Part shown: one piece after another, positions 9,745 to 32,289 of the stretch | Numbering within the stretch: the first letter of the stretch is position 1 | Layout of the letters: each line of letters starts with the position of its first letter | Assembly: GCA_024688225.1 (NCBI GenBank) | Contig: JAILEI010000204.1 | Coordinates: 1-49,501 of the forward strand | DNA length: 49,501 nucleotides | Direction: 5' to 3' | Source of the DNA: Succinivibrionaceae bacterium | GTDB lineage: Bacteria; Pseudomonadota; Gammaproteobacteria; Enterobacterales; Succinivibrionaceae | Made by a program: the position numbers and the translations under genes | Notes under the pieces: model-generated | What the model saw: the letters and a program-made list of their open reading frames with translations, nothing else | Database searches by the model: none | Told to the model about the DNA's origin: nothing

Positions 9745-10203
9745 TCACTCATTGGGGATAAGTCCCCGACCCTCGAGGTAACGCCTGATCCCGGCCATGG
9801 TTTCCGGGGAGATGACATGCTCGATGCGGCAGGCGTCCCGCTCGGCAATGTTGGAAGGCACCTGCGCCACGTCCTGCAGCAGCACAGTCAGCAACTGGTG
9901 CCGCTTGAAGATGGAGACCGCCAGCGTGCTGCCCGAGGGGGTCAGCACAATGTCACCCGAGTCCTCGATGGTGATGTACCCCTTCTCCCTCAGCAACCCC
10001 AGGCCCCGGCTGACACTGGGCTTGGACAACCCCAGCTCGTTTGACACGTCCACCGCGCGCACCCTGCGCCCCTCGGAGCGCTCCTTGAGGATGAGGATGG
10101 TCTCAAGGTAAGTCTCGCCAGACTCCGCCATGACCCCACTGCGCAGGGGCACCGGTTCCGATACCGCCGACTGCGCGGTTGGCAGCTGCAAGTTGTTGTC
10201 CAT
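9745..10203 (-). CDS. DtxR/MntR-family metal-dependent regulator
   Basis: A winged-helix repressor of the DtxR family, which binds DNA when loaded with Fe(II) or Mn(II). The DNA-binding part is TYLETILILKERSEG...LGLSKPSVSRGLGLLREKGYI, and the metal/dimerisation part holds H102, C125, E128 and H129 (RHQLL and DACRIEHVIS). The cysteine where MntR has Glu99 resembles the DtxR/IdeR site (C-x-x-E-H), while Asp8 of MntR is replaced by Thr. Iron rather than manganese is therefore possible. At 152 residues it lacks the SH3-like domain of DtxR. GGGGAGAG precedes the ATG at 10203. It lies 43 bases after the Fur-like gene and is probably co-transcribed with it. Confidence 0.85.
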   Translation of the reverse strand: MDNNLQLPTAQSAVSEPVPLRSGVMAESGETYLETILILKERSEGRRVRAVDVSNELGLSKPSVSRGLGLLREKGYITIEDSGDIVLTPSGSTLAVSIFKRHQLLTVLLQDVAQVPSNIAERDACRIEHVISPETMAGIRRYLEGRGLIPNE

Positions 10204-10246: not shown

Positions 10247-10696
10247 TCAGCCCTGGACCTTAACCTCTATGGTGCTGCCATTGAGCAGCAGCGAGACCTC
10301 CTGGCCATCACGCAGCGCCCCCCTGGCGGCCAGCCCCTCACGCACCAGCTCGGCAAGGGTCAGGCCCGCGGTCCCCTCGATCACATGCCCGCCCGCATCG
10401 GTCACCGAGCCCAGGCGCGGCACGTCCGGGCGCATGTCCAGGGCGCGGGATCTGGAGAGGATCCCAATCTGCTCCAGGCGGTTGATGAGGCGGTAGACCG
10501 TGGCGATGCCCAGGTCAGGGACCCGCTCCTTGGCCTCATACCACAGCGCCTTGGGCGAGGTGCTCTTGCTGTTCATCAGCACGTCGATGATGCGGCGGCG
10601 CTGCACCGTCATCCTCAGCCCGCTCTCCTCGAGCTTGCGCAGGGTATCCGCATTCAGCCTGCCCACGTCGTAGCGCAAATCTTCATCGCTTGCCAT
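10247..10696 (-). CDS. Fur-like winged-helix protein without metal ligands
   Basis: The first ~85 residues match the DNA-binding domain of the Fur/Zur/PerR family: ESGLRMTVQRRRIIDVL, then PDLGIATVYRLINRLEQIGIL, close to the Fur recognition helix motif IGLATVYRVLNQ. The C-terminal half is not a normal Fur dimerisation domain. It has no cysteine at all, only one histidine (GGHVIEG), and lacks the HHxH and CxxC metal sites. Instead it ends in a short charged region with LTLAELVREGLAARG and VSLLLNGSTIEVKV. It should bind DNA but probably not through classical Fe/Zn sensing. It is the first gene of a two-gene unit with the DtxR-type regulator. Alternatives are a distant Fur subgroup or a regulator sensing something else. 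Confidence 0.75.
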   Translation of the reverse strand: MASDEDLRYDVGRLNADTLRKLEESGLRMTVQRRRIIDVLMNSKSTSPKALWYEAKERVPDLGIATVYRLINRLEQIGILSRSRALDMRPDVPRLGSVTDAGGHVIEGTAGLTLAELVREGLAARGALRDGQEVSLLLNGSTIEVKVQG

Positions 10697-10750
10697 TTTC
10701 AGGTTCCTGATCCTGGGTCAATGGTGCCTACATGGAGGCGGGAAAGGCGC

Positions 10751-10819
10751 TTTTCAAGATCACGGCGCTGCGGTTAGCCTATGCAAACCATTTTACAGGA
10801 TCACGGTTCAGGCAAACCA
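10751..10819 (-). repeat. Direct repeats upstream of the Fur-like gene, possible operator
   Basis: Two copies of a composite element occur, read here on the plus strand: TTTTCAAGATCACGG (10751-10765) with GCAAACCA (10783-10790), then TTTTACAGGATCACGG (10791-10806) with GCAAACCA (10812-10819). They lie 55-120 bases upstream of the ATG at 10696, where a promoter would be expected. The second copy runs into the 3' end of the upstream gene. A binding site for one of the two regulators encoded downstream is a reasonable guess. Confidence 0.45.
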
Positions 10820-11533
10820 CTTTGCGTAGGCAAAGCCCAGGGAAAAGGTCAGGAGCAGCGCCGCAGCCAGCCACCTTAACACCACCTTGCCCCGCTCGAG
10901 GTTCTCCTGGGTGCTGGTCTCCCTTTGCAGCGCCCCGGTATCGAGGCGCGAGCGCAGATCCTCCAGGGTATGGGTGCCCGAGGGATCCTTGCGCCCAATC
11001 ACGGCCGGGGTCCCATAGGCCCGGTGGAACCAGAAGGCATAGCCCATGGCCGCCTTCTTGAAGCGCTCCACCCGGTAGCGCAGGATCACGTTCGCCCCAA
11101 AGTCCTCGGCGGCCTTGCGCAGCGCCGCCACAGCCACCTCAGGGCGACGGGCCACCCTGAAGATGTCCTTGCCCGAGCGGGCAATAATCTCATAACCCTC
11201 AGGATAGGTCTCGCGCCTTAGCTCCAGGGACCCAGGAACGCTGTAGGTGCTGTTGAGCTCAAGGAAGGATTCTGGATCGTCAAAGCACAGTCCCTCGGCC
11301 TCCCCGCCAGGGCCGAGGCCAAAGCGGCAGGGCATGCCCACCACCAGGCAGTCGCTGTCCTCCGGCCGCTGCAGTGAGGCCACGGTAAACCTCAGGATCC
11401 GCCCGTCCGCGGCCTGGATATGGCCGTGGGAGGTCTCATGGTCAAAGGAGGAAATGGTGCCCTGCAGTGCCGGGCGCTCAGGGGTGGCGGGGGACTGCCC
11501 CGCGCTCTCAAGGTTGGGCATGGCAAACTTCAC
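10808..11533 (-). CDS. Cold-shock-like domain protein with C-terminal membrane anchor
   Basis: I do not recognise a named family. Residues ~22-80 (ALQGTISSFDHETSHGHIQAADGRILRFTV, ending in VGMPCRFGLGPGGEAEG) have the spacing of a cold-shock/OB-fold domain, which normally binds nucleic acid. The middle (YEIIARSGKDIFRVARRPEVAVAALRKAAEDFGANVILRY) is soluble and mixed alpha/beta. The last ~25 residues (VVLRWLAAALLLTFSLGFAYAKWFA) form one membrane segment, suggesting tail anchoring. The GTG start at 11533 overlaps the stop of the upstream gene (GTGA), but an ATG at 11521 is also possible because the junction sits in a 17-bp tandem duplication. It is last in a four-gene operon. Confidence 0.6.
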   Translation of the reverse strand: MKFAMPNLESAGQSPATPERPALQGTISSFDHETSHGHIQAADGRILRFTVASLQRPEDSDCLVVGMPCRFGLGPGGEAEGLCFDDPESFLELNSTYSVPGSLELRRETYPEGYEIIARSGKDIFRVARRPEVAVAALRKAAEDFGANVILRYRVERFKKAAMGYAFWFHRAYGTPAVIGRKDPSGTHTLEDLRSRLDTGALQRETSTQENLERGKVVLRWLAAALLLTFSLGFAYAKWFA

Positions 11534-12067: not shown

Positions 12068-14650
12068 TTACTGGCGCTCTTCAGCGCTGAAAAGCGTTGG
12101 GTCATCCATATTCCCCACCTGCGGCAGGGCCCTAGGCTGCGGGGGTTCCTCACCCTGGCCCAGCAGCATGCCAAGGTCAAAGCACATCACCAGTCCCGCC
12201 AGGGAACTGCCCGCGGACCTGGCCCGCAGCGCATGCCTCCTCACCAGTTCCGGCACCAGGACATGCCCCAGGGGCCGCAGCGCCAGCAGCATCATGAACT
12301 CATCGAATGAGACATGGCCGGTATTGGACTCCACCTCCAGCCACTCCAGTTCCACCCTCAGGCGCCGCAGCCGCTGCTCGCCGTGGGCGGCGGGAGGGAC
12401 ATACTCACTGGCCAGGAAGTCAACCAAATCCCCGCAAATGTAGGGACTGTCCGCCCCATCCCTTTGCAGCAGCTCAATGGCGCTGGGGATCGACTTGACA
12501 TGCGGGCTGAAGAGCTGCCGGTCAACGGCCCTGATGAGCATGCCCCGCTCTATGTCAGTCTTGCCCGAGGACAGGGCCGCGTACAGCTCGGCGATTAACG
12601 CCCGGGCCTCCTTTTCCTTCGGATCCTGCTCGAGCTTGCGGTTTGAGTAGTAGGATGCCATCCCCGCCATGGACTGGGCCATGGCATAGCCGCTATCGCA
12701 ACCCATGGACAGGCCCCGCTGCCGAGAGTAAATCACTGACAGGCGATAGACCGCATCCCGGTCACCCATCCTTGCCCCACTGAGCAGGTAACTGTTGGCG
12801 CGCAGCTCATCATGGGGGTAAAGCACCCCGCTGGCATCCGCCATGAACAGCGCCGCCGTGGCGCTGGAGGCTGACAAGGCATCGAGCCTGTCGATGAGAT
12901 CAATGCACCGCAGGGGATGGAACTTGCCCCGGGACCTGAGTTCCTGGACCTCCCGGAGCGCCGGGGAGAAATGACTTTGCGCCGACAGGTAGAGATGGCT
13001 GTGGGACAGTTCCACCTGCCCAATCTCCGCATGCGACATCACAAAATAGCCATACTTGAGGCCATCAGCCACCGCCCGCCCGGCAATCCTGGCCCCCTGC
13101 GCAAAGTTGCCCTCGCTGATGCAGGATATGGCCTCATTGAACATGGCCAGGGGGAAGCCATCGTGGGACGAGCGGCCCCACCAGCGCCGCGCCTGCGCCA
13201 CGTCGCCCTTGACCCCGTCACTGCCATTCCAGAAGGCACTGCCGAGGCGGAAGGAAATCCCGGCATGGCCCAGGGCAGCGGCCCGCTCCACATACGGGGA
13301 GCGGGCAAACTGCCCATCGAGCAGGATCTCAAGATCCGCCATCGCCACCACCGACTGCTCGTGCCCGGACCTGAGCCCATTGCCGAGGAATGCCTCGAAG
13401 ATCTTCAGGTCGCCAGGATCTGCCTTGCCCGGCTTGCCTGCCGACACGATTTCCCGCGCGGCATTGAGCACCCGGTCATAGAAGCGGTAGTCCGTGATCC
13501 CCGGGCCGTCAACCGCCGCCAGGCTGCAAAGCGCGGCGCGCAGCCCTGGATAGTCGCCGCAGCGCAGGAGGTCCAGGGCCTGCTCCACGGCCCAGTCACA
13601 GGGAGTTATGCCGGAGACAATGCCATCGTCCCGCTCCTGGGTGGCGACCATGGCCATGAAATTGATGAGCGCCGAGAGCAGCGAGACCGCCAGCTCGCGA
13701 TCCACCCCCGCGTCGCCGCCCATGATCCGCCGGCACTCCTCATAGTCCTCGTCATCAAGGTACAGCGCCAGGGCGCAGGCCGCCTTCATGAAGTCAAAGG
13801 CCACCCGGTAGCCGCCGTCCCCGTCCCTGAGGCCCATGAAGCACAGGAGGTAGATCATCATCGCCCGGGGGTTGCCCACCAGCGCCGCATAGGCTATGTA
13901 GTCACGGGCCCGCTGGCGATCGGGGGGCAGGTCCCTGCCCATCAGGAACGCCAGCCCAATTTCAAGCGCCGCCTGGGGGGGCATCCCAAACATCAGCCCA
14001 TCATTCTTGCCCAGGGTGGTGCGCCGGTACTCAAACTCAAGCGCCACCCGCCCCAGCACGTCCTCAGCCCGCTCATTGGTCTCATGGATGGTGTCATTGT
14101 CGCAAATGCCCAGGAACCCCATGGGGAACATGAGCAAGGGGGGCTGCTCGGCGGCACTGAAGGCGCTGATCAGGTAGTAGACATAGAAAGGCACGCCGCG
14201 GACCACGGCCTGCAGCACGGGATAGAACATCAGGCGGCGGAACTCATCGATGGCCTCGCCATTCACCACCACCCGCTCCGCCGCGCTGCCAGTGTCATCG
14301 GGCAGGCTCTTGCCCTGCGCGTAGCAGACGCTGCTCATGAACTGGTGGATGGCCTCCATGCGCATCCAGGCGCGCAGATCCTCGCCCCCGGTCCCGCCCC
14401 CCATTTCCACCGCCACAAACTGGTGGTAAAAGGCCCGGTCGCGCAGCGACGAGTCAGGCTCACCCCCTTCCATCCCGGACTCGATCTCCTTGCGCTGCGC
14501 CACGAACTGCTCCCGCAGTTCCTTGGCCTGCCTGAGGTGCCAGTCGCGGTCATGCGGCCCCGGGCCCGGCGCCTTAGGGCTGAGAAACCGCCCCTCAAGG
14601 TCGGCCAGGGCGCGCAGGCAGGCCCCAAGACCCTTGTTTTGATCAACCAT
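12068..14650 (-). CDS. Large uncharacterised protein with degenerate Sel1-like repeats
   Basis: An 860-residue protein I cannot assign to a named family. It has no signal peptide or clear membrane segment, so it is probably cytosolic. It is mainly helical, with stretches spaced like Sel1/TPR-type repeats around residues 225-275 (ALEIGLAFLMGRD then RARDYIAYAALVGNPRAMM), 450-510 (YVERAAALGHAGISFRLGSAFWNG then ARRWWGRSSHDGFPLAMFNEA) and in the last third (YLLSGARMGDRDAVYRLSVIY). These point to a protein-binding scaffold. It lies between a secreted Sel1-repeat gene and the pRiA4b-like gene in a packed operon. Base composition is like its neighbours, so there is no sign of recent transfer. Confidence 0.7.
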   Translation of the reverse strand: MVDQNKGLGACLRALADLEGRFLSPKAPGPGPHDRDWHLRQAKELREQFVAQRKEIESGMEGGEPDSSLRDRAFYHQFVAVEMGGGTGGEDLRAWMRMEAIHQFMSSVCYAQGKSLPDDTGSAAERVVVNGEAIDEFRRLMFYPVLQAVVRGVPFYVYYLISAFSAAEQPPLLMFPMGFLGICDNDTIHETNERAEDVLGRVALEFEYRRTTLGKNDGLMFGMPPQAALEIGLAFLMGRDLPPDRQRARDYIAYAALVGNPRAMMIYLLCFMGLRDGDGGYRVAFDFMKAACALALYLDDEDYEECRRIMGGDAGVDRELAVSLLSALINFMAMVATQERDDGIVSGITPCDWAVEQALDLLRCGDYPGLRAALCSLAAVDGPGITDYRFYDRVLNAAREIVSAGKPGKADPGDLKIFEAFLGNGLRSGHEQSVVAMADLEILLDGQFARSPYVERAAALGHAGISFRLGSAFWNGSDGVKGDVAQARRWWGRSSHDGFPLAMFNEAISCISEGNFAQGARIAGRAVADGLKYGYFVMSHAEIGQVELSHSHLYLSAQSHFSPALREVQELRSRGKFHPLRCIDLIDRLDALSASSATAALFMADASGVLYPHDELRANSYLLSGARMGDRDAVYRLSVIYSRQRGLSMGCDSGYAMAQSMAGMASYYSNRKLEQDPKEKEARALIAELYAALSSGKTDIERGMLIRAVDRQLFSPHVKSIPSAIELLQRDGADSPYICGDLVDFLASEYVPPAAHGEQRLRRLRVELEWLEVESNTGHVSFDEFMMLLALRPLGHVLVPELVRRHALRARSAGSSLAGLVMCFDLGMLLGQGEEPPQPRALPQVGNMDDPTLFSAEERQ

Positions 14651-14682
14651 CTTTTGTCCAGTGCTCAGGCGCCAGGCATGGC

Positions 14683-15486
14683 CTAGCGCCGTTTGGCCTC
14701 AGTGCAGGCCAGGCGGTTGCCCAGCCCGCACCCTTTCTTGAACAGGGCGCGGGCCTGGTCCAATGACTTTTTAACCCCCAGGCCCTGGCGGCAAAGGAAG
14801 CCCAGGTTGGTGCAGGCAAAGGCATTGCCCCGCTCGCAACCCTTGCTGAAGATCTCGGCTGCCTTGGCAGGGTTCCTGGGCACCCCCTGCCCTTTTTTGT
14901 ACAGCAACCCCAGGCCGCCACAGGCAAACTGGTTCCCCAGGCGACAGCCCTTGCCATAGAGCCTGGCCGCCGCCTGGTAGTCAACCCGCTTGCCGTGCAG
15001 GCTGAGAAATCCCGCCCTGCTGCAGCCAAAGCCATATCCCAGGTCACAGGCCCGGACGTACAACCGCAGCGCCTTCGCCTGGTCGGGGTCCTGGCGCTCA
15101 TGGTAGAAACCCAGGCTGGCACAGGCACGGGCACTGCCTCCCTCGCAGTCCGCCCCCAGCGCCTGGGGGCCGCTGGCAGCAGGCCGATCCGCCGTGACCT
15201 TTGGGGATCCCTGGCGTGGCGCGGAACTGCCAGGTTGCTGTGCCCCCGCCTCACCCATCATCCCCAGCGCGGCACAGGCATAGTCATCAGCAAGCTCGCA
15301 GGCCCTTTGGTAATAGGAAGTGGCCCCGGCAGTATCTGCGTCTGTGAAAAAAAGGCGATCCGCAATGGCCACGCAGGCCCTGGCATCGCCGCCAGCGCAC
15401 TGGGCCCTGTCATCGCCGGCAAGCGTCAGGGCCGGCACGGCCCACAGAACCGCCAGGCAGGCTGCCGCGCCCCAACAGTACCGCAT
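14683..15486 (-). CDS. Periplasmic cysteine-rich Sel1-repeat protein
   Basis: A secreted Sel1-like repeat protein of the type seen in Helicobacter cysteine-rich proteins (Hcp). The ATG at 15486 has GGGGGTGAG upstream and begins a signal peptide (MRYCWGAAACLAVLWAVPALTLAG), so I prefer it to the track start at 15528. The mature part has a series of repeats with paired cysteines eight residues apart, such as ACELADDYAC, ACDLGYGFGC, GCRLGNQFAC, GCERGNAFAC and GCGLGNRLAC, each fit for a disulfide across a helix pair. Such proteins usually bind other proteins, and the ligand here is unknown. It is the first gene of the four-gene operon and has an extended -10 promoter just upstream. Confidence 0.85.
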   Translation of the reverse strand: MRYCWGAAACLAVLWAVPALTLAGDDRAQCAGGDARACVAIADRLFFTDADTAGATSYYQRACELADDYACAALGMMGEAGAQQPGSSAPRQGSPKVTADRPAASGPQALGADCEGGSARACASLGFYHERQDPDQAKALRLYVRACDLGYGFGCSRAGFLSLHGKRVDYQAAARLYGKGCRLGNQFACGGLGLLYKKGQGVPRNPAKAAEIFSKGCERGNAFACTNLGFLCRQGLGVKKSLDQARALFKKGCGLGNRLACTEAKRR

Positions 15487-27800: not shown

Positions 27801-28964
27801 CTACTTGGCCTCGGCCGCACGCTTCTCGAGGATCTCCACCGCCGGGAGCTTCTTGCCCTCGACGAACTCGAGGAAGGCGCCGCCGCCCGTTGAGATGTAG
27901 GAGATCTTGGACTGCACGCCAAACTTCTCAATCGCGGAGATGGTGTCGCCACCACCAGCCACCGAGAAGGCGTCAGAGTTGGCAATCGCCTCGGCCAGAG
28001 CCTTGGTGCCGCCCGCGAACTGCTCAAACTCGAAGACACCCACCGGGCCGTTCCACAGGATGGTCTTGGCGTTCTTGATCACCTCGACAATGTTGGCAAT
28101 GGACTTGGGGCCCAGGTCGAAGATCATGTCATCGTCCTGCACGTCCGCGAGATCCACGGTCTTGGCGGGGGTGGACTCGGAGAACTCCTTGCCCACCACC
28201 ACGTCCACAAACTCCGGGACCTTGCCGGAGAGGCGCTTGGCCTCGCCGATAAACTCCTGCTCGCACAATGACTTGCCCACCTTGTGGCCGCCAGCGGCCA
28301 TGAAGGTGTTGGCAATGCCACCGCCCACCACCAGCTGGTCGGCGATCTTGAGCAGCGAGTCGAGGACGGTAATCTTGGTCGAGACCTTGGAGCCGCCGAC
28401 AATCGCCACCATCGGGCGCTGCGGGTTGTCCATGGCCTTGCCCAGGGCCTCCAGCTCCGCCGCAAGCAGCGGGCCGGCGCAGGCCACCGGGGCATACTGG
28501 GCCACGCCATAGGTGGTGCCCTGGGCGCGGTGGGCGGTGCCAAAGGCGTCCATCACGAACACGTCGCAGAGGGCGGCGTACTTGCGGGCCAGATCCTCGG
28601 CGTTCTTCTTCTCGCCCTTGTTGAAGCGGCAGTTCTCAAGGATGGTGATCTCATTCTCCTTGGCCTCCACCCCGTCAAGGTAATCCTTGACCAGGCGCAC
28701 CGGGACATCGACCTTGGAGGCGATGTACTCCTGGACGGGCTTGAGGGAGAACTCCTCGTTGTAGACCCCCTCCTCGGGACGGCCGAGGTGGGAGGTCACC
28801 ATCACCTTGGCACCCTTCTCAAGGGCCAGCTTGATGGTGGGCAGGGTGGCCATGATGCGCTTGTCGGACGCCACCTTGCCATCCTTGATCGGCACATTCA
28901 GGTCCGAGCGGATGAGAACGCGCTTGCCCTTAAGATCGAGATCAGCCATCTTCAAAATAGCCAT
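27801..28964 (-). CDS. pgk: Phosphoglycerate kinase
   Basis: Transfers phosphate between 1,3-bisphosphoglycerate and ADP in glycolysis. The N-terminal substrate signature is [18 protein letters not shown], with [12 protein letters not shown] and [10 protein letters not shown]. In the C-terminal nucleotide domain are [22 protein letters not shown] and [13 protein letters not shown]. At 387 residues it is full-length. An AAGGAG site precedes the ATG by about nine bases. It sits between tkt (76-base gap with a hairpin) and fba in the same direction. Confidence 0.97.
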
Positions 28965-29009
28965 TGATGCATCTCCTTGTGCAATAAGAAAAAGTTATCC
29001 AAAATGGAA

Positions 29010-29032
29010 CCGGGATGGCGCTGCCATCCCGG
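29010..29032 (-). other. Hairpin between tkt and pgk
   Basis: A perfect 10-bp stem (CCGGGATGGC, loop GCT, GCCATCCCGG) eight bases past the tkt stop. On the minus strand TTCCATTTTGG follows, a poor U-tract. It could be a partial terminator or an RNA-stability element. Confidence 0.55.
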
Positions 29033-29040
29033 AAAGTTGG

Positions 29041-31035
29041 CTAGCGGAGGACTTCCTCGGCCGCCTTGACCACATTCTCGACCGTGAAGCCGAACTTGGG
29101 GAACAGCTCCCCGGCGGGGCCGGACGCGCCGAAGCAGTCCATGCCCACGACCTTGCCGTCCAGGCCGACGTACTTGTACCACAGGCCAGTCGAGCCGGCC
29201 TCAACCGCCACGCGGGCGCGCACGGCCGGGGGCAGCACACTGTCCTTGTAGGACTGATCCTGGCGATCAAAGGCCTCGAAGCAGGGCATCGACACCACCC
29301 GCACCTTGCGACCCTTGCCGGCGAGCTCCTCAGCGGCATGGAAGGCCAGCGCCACCTCGGAGCCAGTGGCCAGCAGGATGACGTCGGGGGTGCCGGCGCA
29401 GTCCTTGAGCACATAGCCGCCGCGGGCGATGTTCGCCACCTGCTCGAGATCGCGGGGCATCTGCTCCAGCCCCTGGCGGGTGCACACGATGTCACTCGGC
29501 CCAGTGGTGCGGGCAATCATCTGCGCCCAGGCCGCGGCAGTCTCGACCTGGTCGCATGGGCGCCAGGTGTCGAGGTTCGGCACCAGGCGCAGCGTGGAGG
29601 TCTGCTCCACCGGCTGGTGGGTCGGGCCATCCTCTCCCACGCCAATGGAGTCGTGGGTGAAGACGTAAAGGGCGGGGATCTCCATCAGCGCGGACATCCT
29701 GATGGCATTGCGCGCGTACTCGGAGAAGATGAGGAAGGTGCCGCCATAGGGGCGGAAGCCGCCATGCAGCAGCATGCCGTTGTTGCCGGCGCACATCGCA
29801 AACTCCCTCACGCCCCAGTGGAGGTAGTTGCCATCGAACTTGCCGGGCAGGATCTCATGGGACTCCTTGTTGATGGTCAGGTTGGAGGGCGCCAGGTCGG
29901 CGGAGCCGCCCACAAACTCAGGCAGCATCTTGGCAAAGAAGTCGAGGGCGTTCTGGCTGGCCTTGCGGGTGGCCACCTTCTGCGGGTTGGACTGCAACTG
30001 CGAGAGGAAATCGGCGGTCTTCTGCTCAAATCCCTCCGGCAGGCGCCCCTCAAGGCGGCGCTTGAACTCAGCGGCAAGCTCAGGGTACTTCTCGGCATAG
30101 GCGCCAAAGAGCCCTTTCCACTCCGCCTCCAGGCGCTCGCCCTGCTCGACCGCGCTCCACTCCTTGTAAATCCCCTCGGGGATCTCAAAGGGCGGGTAGT
30201 TCCAGCCCAGGGCCTCACGGGTCAGCTTGATCTCGTCATCGCCAAGGGGCGCGCCATGCGATGCGGACTTGCCGCCCTTGTTGGGAGATCCAAAGCCAAT
30301 GGTGGTGTGGCAGATGATCAGCGAGGGATGCTCGGTGTCAGCCTTGGCGGCGGCAATGGCCTCGCGGAGCTTCGCCCCATCGTGACCGTCAACCTCGAGC
30401 ACCTGCCAGTGATAGCCCTCAAAGCGCTTGCGGGTGTCATCGCCAAACCAGTTCTTGATCTCGCCGTCAATGGAGATGCCATTGGAGTCATAAAGCACCA
30501 CCAGCTTGCCAAGGCCCAGGGTGCCGGCAAAGGAGCAGGCCTCGTGGGACAGGCCCTCCATCATGCAGCCATCGCCCATGAAGGCGTAAGTGTAGTGGTC
30601 AACCACCGGGAAGCCCGGGCGGTTGAACTGGCTGGCAAGCACCCGCTCCGCAAGCGCCATGCCCACGGCGTTGGCAATGCCCTGCCCCAGCGGGCCGGTG
30701 GTGGTCTCCACCCCCGGCACCCACCCATGCTCAGGGTGGCCAGGGGTCTTGGAGCCGCACTGCCTGAAGCGCTTGAGCTCCTCAATCGGCAGGTCGTACC
30801 CGCTCAGGTGGAGGAGCGAGTAAATCAGCATCGAGGCATGGCCGTTGGACAGGACAAAGCGGTCCCGGTTGGGCCACTTGGGATCCTTGGGGTTGTGGTG
30901 CAGGAAGCCGCGCCACAGCGCCTCCGCCATGTCCGCCATGCCCATGGGGGCACCGGGGTGGCCGGAATTGGCCTTTTGCACGCCGTCCATGCTCAGGGCA
31001 CGCACTGCATTGGCAAGTTCGCGATATTCTGCCAT
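29041..31035 (-). CDS. tkt: Transketolase
   Basis: Thiamine-diphosphate enzyme moving two-carbon units between sugar phosphates in the non-oxidative pentose phosphate pathway. The N-terminal signature is [20 protein letters not shown], the cofactor motif begins [10 protein letters not shown] and continues to [12 protein letters not shown], and the pyrimidine domain contains [20 protein letters not shown]. At 664 residues it is the same size as E. coli TktA. GGAGAG precedes the ATG. It lies next to pgk, as in the tktA-epd-pgk-fbaA order of many gammaproteobacteria, but epd is absent, so pyridoxal phosphate synthesis by that route must be encoded elsewhere or not exist. Confidence 0.97.
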
Positions 31036-31077
31036 TTTTCTCTCTCCTTACGTTGTTGCTATGGTTGCCGGCCGCGC

Positions 31078-32289
31078 CTAATCCAGGGGCTGGCCGTTAA
31101 TCTTCACCTGCAGGCCCTCGATGGCAATGTCACAGTCATAGCCATCGCCGGACTGCTTGAGGTACTGCGCCAGGCCAAACATGGCGATCGCATCCTGCGC
31201 GCTCTTGGACAGGTCCGAGAGGTGGGCCTTGAATGCCCCCTTGCTCTGATCCTCATGCGCAAAGTTCAGGGTGCCGGAGCCCGAGGAGGTAAGCTTGAGG
31301 CCCAGATCCTTAATCATGCCGCCGGCGTCCTTGAGGTTTAGCACCACGTCCAGCTGGTCAAGCTGGAGTGACACCTGATCGTTGGCCCAGTACTTCTCAA
31401 AGGGGGTGTCAGGGGACACATTGGAAAGCATCTCCCGCTTCATTTCGCCAATGGTGCCCTTGGACCTGAGGCTCTGGGCCTGGCCCTTGTCCTCGAGGCT
31501 CACGCCAAAGATCAGTGGCACCCCATCCCCCTTGGACTCACCGGTCCTGAGGCTAAGGTCAAGCTCATCGAGGAAGGAATCAGCCTCGACCAGGTTGATG
31601 TCATCCATGCCGATGTCAATGTCAAAGGACTCCACGGTCTTCTGATCAGCCTGGGTCAGACCGGTGGACTTAACCTCCACCTTGCCGATGGAGGCCGCCT
31701 CGGACCGGATCCCGGTGAGCTCCAGCTCAACATCAACCTTGCCACCATTGTTGTTGCCCTTGGCCTCAATCTCAAGTCCCAGGGCATCCTGCACTGGGGC
31801 CTTGGCCAGGCCCTTGTCGCCGCGCGACATCACCTCGGGGAAGCCCGAGACATACCCATCCTGGTAGAGGAGCTTGCCGCCCAGGCGGCCCTTGAACTCA
31901 CCGGACAGGACATTGACATTGATGGCAGACTTGAGATCCGCGGACTTGAACTGCTTATTGGGCTGGTTGAGCACACTGAGGTCCGGGACCATCTCCACGC
32001 TGCCGAGACCGGCCTCGCTGTGGATCTTGATTTCCTGCTGCTTGTCCCCGTTGCGGAGCAGCAGCACCCCGTCCTCTGTTGAAAATCCCTTCTCACGGGC
32101 CTCGTAGGTGACGCTCAGGCCCTTCAGCGACTCATCAGTGGCCGCCATCTTCTTTACCTGATCGTTGAGCCCAGAAAATGACTTTTGCAGCGAGGGCTCA
32201 ATCTGCGAGGCGGTGTACTTGATTCCGCCCAGGTATGCGGCGCCCAGCAGGACTGCCAGGCCACCCACCGCCAGGGGCAATTTGTTCAT
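31078..32289 (-). CDS. DUF945 (YdgA-like) family protein
   Basis: A 403-residue protein of the DUF945/YdgA family, inner-membrane-anchored periplasmic proteins of unknown function. The N-terminus has one hydrophobic segment (KLPLAVGGLAVLLGAAYLGGIKYTAS) that could be an anchor or uncleaved signal, then the family-like QIEPSLQKSFSGLNDQVKKMA. The rest is soluble, beta-rich and repetitive in GEFKGRLGGKLLYQDG and KGDGVPLIFGVSLEDKG type strands. AAGGAA lies about 11 bases before the ATG. It sits between talC and tkt, an unexpected place for an envelope protein, and may simply share their transcript. Confidence 0.82.
   Translation of the reverse strand: MNKLPLAVGGLAVLLGAAYLGGIKYTASQIEPSLQKSFSGLNDQVKKMAATDESLKGLSVTYEAREKGFSTEDGVLLLRNGDKQQEIKIHSEAGLGSVEMVPDLSVLNQPNKQFKSADLKSAINVNVLSGEFKGRLGGKLLYQDGYVSGFPEVMSRGDKGLAKAPVQDALGLEIEAKGNNNGGKVDVELELTGIRSEAASIGKVEVKSTGLTQADQKTVESFDIDIGMDDINLVEADSFLDELDLSLRTGESKGDGVPLIFGVSLEDKGQAQSLRSKGTIGEMKREMLSNVSPDTPFEKYWANDQVSLQLDQLDVVLNLKDAGGMIKDLGLKLTSSGSGTLNFAHEDQSKGAFKAHLSDLSKSAQDAIAMFGLAQYLKQSGDGYDCDIAIEGLQVKINGQPLD

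What the first reader, a model, noticed from the sequence alone, without database searches (positions are those of the whole stretch)
10247..10696. Fur-like DNA-binding domain with its metal sites gone
The Fur winged-helix half is clear (IATVYRLINRLEQIGIL), but there is not one cysteine and only one histidine in the C-terminal half, so neither the structural zinc CxxC sites nor the regulatory HHxH site can exist. It should therefore sense something other than iron or zinc, or act constitutively. It is paired with a DtxR-type regulator in a two-gene unit.
Basis: partly seen in the sequence, partly recalled or inferred. Interest (0 to 1): 0.68.

Follow-up and report, generated by a model that had tools for sequence, protein, structure and literature searches.

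The report
Fur with a replaced sensor half
In a family of gut bacteria (Succinivibrionaceae) the standard iron regulator Fur is missing, and in its place is a protein that keeps Fur's DNA-binding half but has an unrelated second half that in this branch shows no metal site; it sits beside a separate metal-sensing regulator of the DtxR type, which suggests that iron control was rebuilt in this lineage.

Summary
ORF 10247-10696 (-) encodes 149 residues with no Cys and one His in the C-terminal half. It matches Pfam FUR only over positions 1-63 of 121.

It is not a lone oddity or a sequencing error. Homologues with the same C-terminal half were found in 44 loci, all Succinivibrionaceae or unnamed bins alongside them. 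No canonical full-length Fur was found in that family; most genomes from other families of the order have one.

The C-terminal half shows no detectable homology to the Fur dimerisation domain and no significant PDB match. In the window's branch it holds no conserved set of metal ligands.

The gene lies 43 bp upstream of a DtxR/MntR-type gene that keeps metal ligands. The pair is conserved in nearly every locus of this branch. An RpoH-like (heat-shock-type) promoter precedes it in about half.

In the sister branch (Ruminobacter, Succinimonas) the homologue carries four invariant Cys, precedes iscS, and is the only Fur-family protein found. There Fur boxes lie before nifU in most genomes tested, and single sites lie near flavodoxin, a TonB receptor and a metal ABC transporter.

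Best reading: a Fur-derived, metal-blind DNA-binding protein whose metal sensing passed to its DtxR partner. Its targets in the window's organism remain unknown.

The parts
10247..10696 (-). CDS of the Fur-like protein, 149 aa, no Cys, one His in the C-terminal half
   Evidence: only PF01475 match in the genome
10445..10627 (-). Fur winged-helix DNA-binding domain, residues 24-84; R28, Y68 and R69 invariant in the family
   Evidence: Pfam FUR 1-63; hhalign with canonical Fur DNA-binding domains probability 98.1; invariant columns
10250..10414 (-). replaced C-terminal domain, about residues 95-149, predicted helix plus beta-hairpin, no conserved metal ligands
   Evidence: AlphaFold2 pLDDT 88; no PDB match below E 1; no Pfam match for the window sequence; not recognisable as Fur dimerisation domain
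9745..10203 (-). DtxR/MntR-type regulator, 152 aa, no SH3 domain, keeps E/H/C/E/H ligand positions
   Evidence: only PF02742 match in the genome
10729..10758 (-). RpoH (sigma-32)-like promoter CTTGAAA-N16-CCATGTA, 5' end 62 nt before the Fur-like start codon
   Evidence: only exact match of CTTGAAAN{14,17}CCATNTA in the 2.05 Mb genome; recurs at a similar place in relatives; same architecture before groES
10769..10787 (-). DtxR-box-like sequence TTTGCATAGGCTAACCGCA (14 of 19), a lead only
   Evidence: scores of 14 or more in 5 of 45 upstream regions against about 1.3% of random windows, composition not matched
10808..11533 (-). conserved upstream neighbour, 241 aa, with a hydrophobic C-terminal tail, no Pfam match

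Best explanation
A Succinivibrionaceae-specific regulator made of the Fur winged helix joined to a different small C-terminal domain. SHOWN by computation: the DNA-binding half and its DNA-contact residues are conserved, all three Fur metal sites are absent, the C-terminal half is not recognisably a Fur dimerisation domain, no canonical full-length Fur was found in the family, and the gene is paired with a DtxR-type gene that keeps metal ligands. INFERRED: the protein binds DNA without a metal co-repressor, probably as a dimer through the new domain. Its activity is set by how much is made, from an RpoH-like promoter that is possibly also controlled by the DtxR partner, while the DtxR partner does the metal sensing. 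The family thus moved metal sensing from Fur to DtxR and kept the Fur DNA-binding half for a subset of targets. In the sister branch those targets look like Fe-S assembly and iron genes and the protein has a possible four-Cys site; in the window's branch the Cys set is gone.
For: Winged helix is that of Fur. Family-wide conservation under purifying selection. No canonical full-length Fur in 57 family genomes, apart from one truncated canonical match in a 74%-complete genome; 50 of 55 genomes from other families of the order have a match at E below 1e-40. C-terminal half: hhalign 0.1-0.3 against Fur and PerR dimerisation domains with working positive controls; no PDB fold match; in 37 sequences of this branch the only C-terminal position with at least 80% Cys, His or acid is position 141 (Asp or Glu in 30 of 37). 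DtxR partner adjacent in 35 of 36 loci, with conserved H, C, E and H ligand positions; a DtxR in 41 of 41 good family genomes, and directly after feoAB in Succinimonas. RpoH-like promoter: score at least 12 of 13 in 16 of 37 loci against 0.75% of random windows. Sister branch: iscS then pepB downstream in 8 of 8 loci, four invariant Cys, Fur boxes before nifU in 5 of 7 genomes of its two best-sampled genera and single sites near flavodoxin, a TonB receptor and a metal ABC ATPase.
Against: No DNA target is identified in the window's genome: 0 sites for TGATAATNATTATCA with up to 1 mismatch and 0 for the 19-bp Fur box with up to 3, so the DNA specificity may have changed. The sister-branch link rests on motif statistics, many of the sites lie inside genes, and two AT-rich genomes (G005, G006) show no excess of Fur boxes over control. 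The RpoH-like promoter is missing in Anaerobiospirillum and several other loci. DtxR-family proteins without the SH3 domain are reported as not Fe-responsive in vivo (PMC7762939), so the partner may sense Mn. Dimerisation is not tested. A foldseek comparison of the whole chain does align it end to end with Fur, but with TM about 0.4 and r.m.s.d. about 13 A.
Confidence: 0.5

Rival explanations
1. The C-terminal domain is a true sensor of a non-metal ligand or of a protein partner, so the protein is regulated allosterically but not by metal.
For: The domain is conserved over the family with invariant Gly and conserved hydrophobic residues and low dN/dS; it is predicted to be compactly folded.
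Against: It is only about 55 residues, helix plus hairpin, with no conserved polar set in this branch and no ligand-domain match in Pfam or PDB. The conserved residues (Gly, hydrophobic) would also suit a dimer interface.
Confidence: 0.2
2. The Fur-like protein and the DtxR act together, as an obligate regulatory pair on shared promoters, neither working alone.
For: Adjacency in 35 of 36 loci of this branch, mostly with short gaps; one copy of each in the window's genome.
Against: In the sister branch the two genes are apart, with DtxR after feoAB in Succinimonas and Fur-like before iscS. Good genomes of two genera (g5, g11) keep DtxR with no Fur-like gene found.
Confidence: 0.15
3. The C-terminal half is a Fur dimerisation domain diverged beyond recognition, which still binds metal through other residues.
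For: By eye VTDAGGHVIEGT resembles the Fur stretch around CLDCGEVIEFT, and MAFFT places the two halves in register.
Against: Profile-profile probability 0.1-0.3 while Fur versus PerR gives 98.6. The fold search with the C-terminal model lists no Fur among the best 50. No conserved ligand set.
Confidence: 0.1
4. A decaying remnant of Fur without function.
For: All metal ligands are lost and no Fur box remains in the window's genome.
Against: Conserved length and sequence over about a dozen genera, dN/dS far below 1 in both halves, conserved gene pair and promoter.
Confidence: 0.05

Closest known systems
Fur of Gammaproteobacteria (E. coli Fur, PF01475)
   Same: Winged-helix domain; GLRMT, IATVYR and Tyr/Arg DNA-contact positions; small regulator of similar length
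   Different: Lacks S1, S2 and S3; the C-terminal half is not recognisable as a Fur dimerisation domain; operon with a DtxR; RpoH-like promoter
Magnetospirillum gryphiswaldense and Pseudomonas aeruginosa Fur
   Same: Also lack Cys of the structural S1 site (PMC11353095)
   Different: They keep S2 and S3 and the full Fur dimerisation domain; the window protein has none of them
DtxR/IdeR and MntR (partner gene)
   Same: Both Pfam domains; C at the DtxR Cys102 position followed by E and H (DACR-EH); H at DtxR H79 / MntR H77; Glu at MntR E11
   Different: No SH3 domain; DtxR M10 / MntR D8 position is Thr or Asn; residues aligned with DtxR E83 and H98 are changed
IscR (Rrf2 family) and Fe-S-binding Fur
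   Same: The sister-branch homologue precedes iscS, where E. coli has iscR, and has four invariant Cys; E. coli Fur is reported to bind a [2Fe-2S] cluster (PMC11353095)
   Different: Different DNA-binding family from IscR; the Cys are at new positions; the window protein has none

Membership tests
Fur family (PF01475) | Fur winged-helix DNA-binding domain | tested here: met
   E 2e-11, 44.4 bits, above cut-off; hhalign 98.1
Fur family (PF01475) | Fur dimerisation domain | tested here: not met
   Profile match stops at 63/121; hhalign 0.1-0.3; no Fur hit among the best 50 for the C-terminal model
Fur family (PF01475) | Structural site S1 (two CxxC) | tested here: not met
   No Cys in the protein
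Fur family (PF01475) | Regulatory site S2 (His of alpha2-alpha3 loop, Glu, two His, Glu) | tested here: not met
   Single His in the C-terminal half; aligned positions not ligands; site definition from PMC11353095
Fur family (PF01475) | Site S3 (His, Asp, Glu, His) | tested here: not met
Fur family (PF01475) | Binds Fur box TGATAATNATTATCA | tested here: inconclusive
   Excess of sites in seven sister-branch genomes (35 against 4 for the reversed pattern), none in the window's genome
Fur family (PF01475) | Homodimer | not testable with these tools
   No complex prediction available
DtxR/MntR family (partner) | N-terminal HTH and metal-binding/dimerisation domains | tested here: met
   PF01325 36.0 and PF02742 53.0 bits, both above cut-off
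DtxR/MntR family (partner) | Metal ligands | tested here: inconclusive
   H, C, E, H (and the E11 position) conserved in 36 aligned sequences; M10/D8 position is T/N
IscR (Rrf2 family) | Rrf2 domain | tested here: not met
   Fur-like protein not matched by PF02082; G000 has no Rrf2 match at E 0.001
RpoH (sigma-32) promoter | CTTGAA(A) and CCCCATNTA hexamer-type elements about 13-17 bases apart | tested here: met
   10729-10758 (-), CTTGAAA-N16-CCATGTA; same form before groES of the family; consensus from own knowledge, activity not tested

The most novel reading that the evidence does not exclude
The Succinivibrionaceae rebuilt their iron regulation. Fur lost its metal-sensing domain and gained a new C-terminal domain. 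In one branch it became an Fe-S-linked regulator with a four-Cys site, standing where IscR stands at the isc locus. In the window's branch it became a metal-blind, heat-shock-driven DNA-binding protein working with a DtxR that took over iron sensing.
Probability: 0.3. Interest if true: 0.78.

Novelty: new variant of a known kind. Interest (0 to 1): 0.62.

Why it matters
Fur is the textbook case of a regulator whose DNA binding is switched by a metal in and around its C-terminal domain. A whole bacterial family in which the Fur DNA-binding half survives with a different C-terminal half, next to a metal sensor of an unrelated family, would show how a central sensory system is rewired. It would also give a natural test of what Fur's winged helix can do without metal. 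Cultured type strains exist (Succinivibrio dextrinosolvens, Succinatimonas hippei, Ruminobacter amylophilus), so it can be tested.

Tried and rejected
Sequencing error or frameshift: rejected, 44 relatives share the C-terminus. A second, canonical Fur elsewhere: none in G000; the other Fur-family proteins of the family that were read are mostly PerR-like with intact metal sites, and one truncated canonical Fur in a 74%-complete genome (G035) may be contamination. Known domain for the C-terminus: no Pfam match shared by members, no significant PDB sequence match (best E 0.15 to acetylglutamate kinase), weak foldseek resemblance to the C-terminal part of Clp ATPases, E 1.6-5 and not significant. 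Canonical Fur box in the window's genome: none. DtxR box upstream: weak, kept as a lead only. Orthology by tree: the Fur-like group is one clade apart from both Fur and PerR (94/75), but 68 columns cannot resolve its origin. The four-Cys geometry could not be measured because model coordinates are not exposed.

Full report
Observation. The ORF at 10247-10696 (-) is 149 aa, with no Cys and one His in its C-terminal half. Pfam FUR matches residues 24-84 only, profile positions 1-63 of 121, at 44.4 bits against a cut-off of 23.1. Its significant PDB sequence matches are Fur and PerR proteins, and they too end near residue 79-94. It is the only PF01475 protein in the 2.05 Mb, 96% complete genome.

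Distribution. All 44 relatives found in 84,980 bacterial and archaeal genomes are Succinivibrionaceae, or uncultured bins that fall with them: Succinatimonas, Succinivibrio, Anaerobiospirillum, Avisuccinivibrio, Ruminobacter, Succinimonas. In the family, 28 of 35 sampled genomes have a match through to the C-terminus, whereas outside the family matches stop at about residue 84. Of the 55 genomes sampled from other families of the order, 50 have a FUR match at E below 1e-40. The family has none of these, apart from a truncated canonical match in one 74%-complete genome; its other Fur-family proteins that were read are mostly PerR-like with intact CxxC and His. Both halves of the Fur-like gene are under purifying selection, the C-terminal half evolving faster.

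The C-terminal half. In profile-profile comparisons it shows no relation to the dimerisation domain of Fur or PerR (probability 0.1-0.3). The positive controls work: Fur-like versus Fur DNA-binding domains 98.1, Fur versus PerR dimerisation domains 98.6, and the two branches of this family with each other 98.1. An AlphaFold2 model of the half alone (pLDDT 88, pTM 0.68) is a helix followed by a beta-hairpin. It has no PDB match below E 1, and Pfam finds nothing in the window sequence. In 37 sequences of the window's branch the only C-terminal position with a conserved acid is 141 (30 of 37), and no Cys or His is conserved there, so a metal site built from other residues of this domain is unlikely. 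The whole-chain model does hit Fur in foldseek, but with TM about 0.4 and r.m.s.d. about 13 A, as expected if only the DNA-binding domain superposes.

The partner. Forty-three bases downstream lies a 152-aa DtxR/MntR-type protein. The pair is present in 35 of the 36 other loci of this branch, and the remaining locus is cut at a contig end. The DtxR keeps H, C, E and H ligand positions throughout the alignment; the Cys is the one found in DtxR rather than the Glu of MntR (residue roles from own knowledge). All 41 good-quality genomes of the family have a DtxR. In Succinimonas a tandem, two-unit DtxR follows feoAB. Counter-evidence: DtxR proteins without an SH3 domain are reported not to respond to Fe in vivo (PMC7762939), so the partner's metal is open.

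The promoter. CTTGAAA-N16-CCATGTA at 10729-10758 (-) is the only match of CTTGAAAN{14,17}CCATNTA in the genome. The element scores at least 12 of 13 in 16 of 37 loci of this branch, mostly 60-70 nt before the start codon, against 0.75% of random windows. groES genes of the same family have the same architecture, including G000 groES (CTTGAAT-N16-CCATTTA). It fits the sigma-32 consensus of E. coli (own knowledge). Anaerobiospirillum and several other loci lack it.

The sister branch. In Ruminobacter, Succinimonas and strain WG-1 the homologue has four invariant Cys in 8 of 8 sequences: one in the first helix, one in the alpha2-alpha3 region, and a CxxC in the wing region. In 8 of 8 loci it is followed by iscS and pepB, with ndk-like and rlmN-like genes further on in several, and in most loci it is preceded by a small ORF with a GxDCxxC motif, one of which matches HMA weakly. 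This is the E. coli isc gene order with the Fur-like gene where iscR would be (own knowledge of E. coli). No other Fur-family protein was found in these genomes. Yet five of seven genomes of the two best-sampled genera have a Fur box before nifU (shuffle p at or below 0.01), while groES upstream regions have none. Genome-wide, sites of TGATAATNATTATCA with at most one mismatch exceed the reversed-pattern control 35 to 4 in these two genera, and single sites lie near flavodoxin, a TonB receptor and a metal ABC ATPase; many others lie inside genes and may be chance. E. coli Fur is reported to bind a [2Fe-2S] cluster (PMC11353095) and to need IscU for activation (title of PMC11001641), which makes an Fe-S-linked Fur derivative plausible. 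The geometry of the four Cys was not tested.

Mechanism. For the window protein the most likely reading is metal-blind DNA binding, with activity set by synthesis and metal sensing left to the DtxR partner. The loss of sites, the replaced domain, the pairing and the promoter sequence are shown computationally; metal-independent binding, dimerisation, targets and the hand-over of sensing are inferred. The main weakness is that no target is known in the window's genome, which has no Fur box.

Novelty. The searches made of the held library found no paper describing it; most subscription journals are not held. It is a new variant of a known kind: a Fur-type winged helix with a lineage-specific C-terminal domain. 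It should not be filed as a Fur metalloregulator, since the dimerisation domain and all metal sites were tested and not met.

Noticed in passing
L179:4836-5789; L180:1770-2582; also G005, G006, G018, G021, G026, G027, G032: Tandem DtxR: two DtxR units in one ORF of about 270-330 aa, both units keeping the C/E/H ligands in the two read in full; in Succinimonas it follows feoAB. Possibly a single-chain dimer.
   Followed up: partly
L096:5676-5927, L100:5606-5908, L103:5685-5918: Small HMA-like ORF with a GxDCxxC motif directly upstream of the sister-branch Fur-like gene.
   Followed up: partly
L063:907-1059, L079:4683-4871, L085:5656-5817: Small Cys-rich membrane ORF resembling FeoB-associated protein (PF12669, below cut-off), upstream of the Fur-like gene in many relatives but without feoB beside it; absent from the window.
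   Followed up: partly
G004, G010, G016, G025, G030: Genomes of two genera (g5, g11) of the family show no Fur-family match at all but keep a DtxR.
   Followed up: no
window 10808-11533 (-): Conserved 241-aa neighbour with an N-terminal stretch that looks like a cold-shock domain by eye and a hydrophobic tail; no Pfam match.
   Followed up: no
window 12917-14686 (+) and 28807-31341 (+): Very long ORFs antisense to a large Sel1-like gene and to a transketolase-like gene, probably a by-product of high GC.
   Followed up: no
L240:1301, L249:1305, L254:1303: A Fur-box-like site about 130 bp before a small secreted protein conserved in three Ruminobacter-type genomes.
   Followed up: partly
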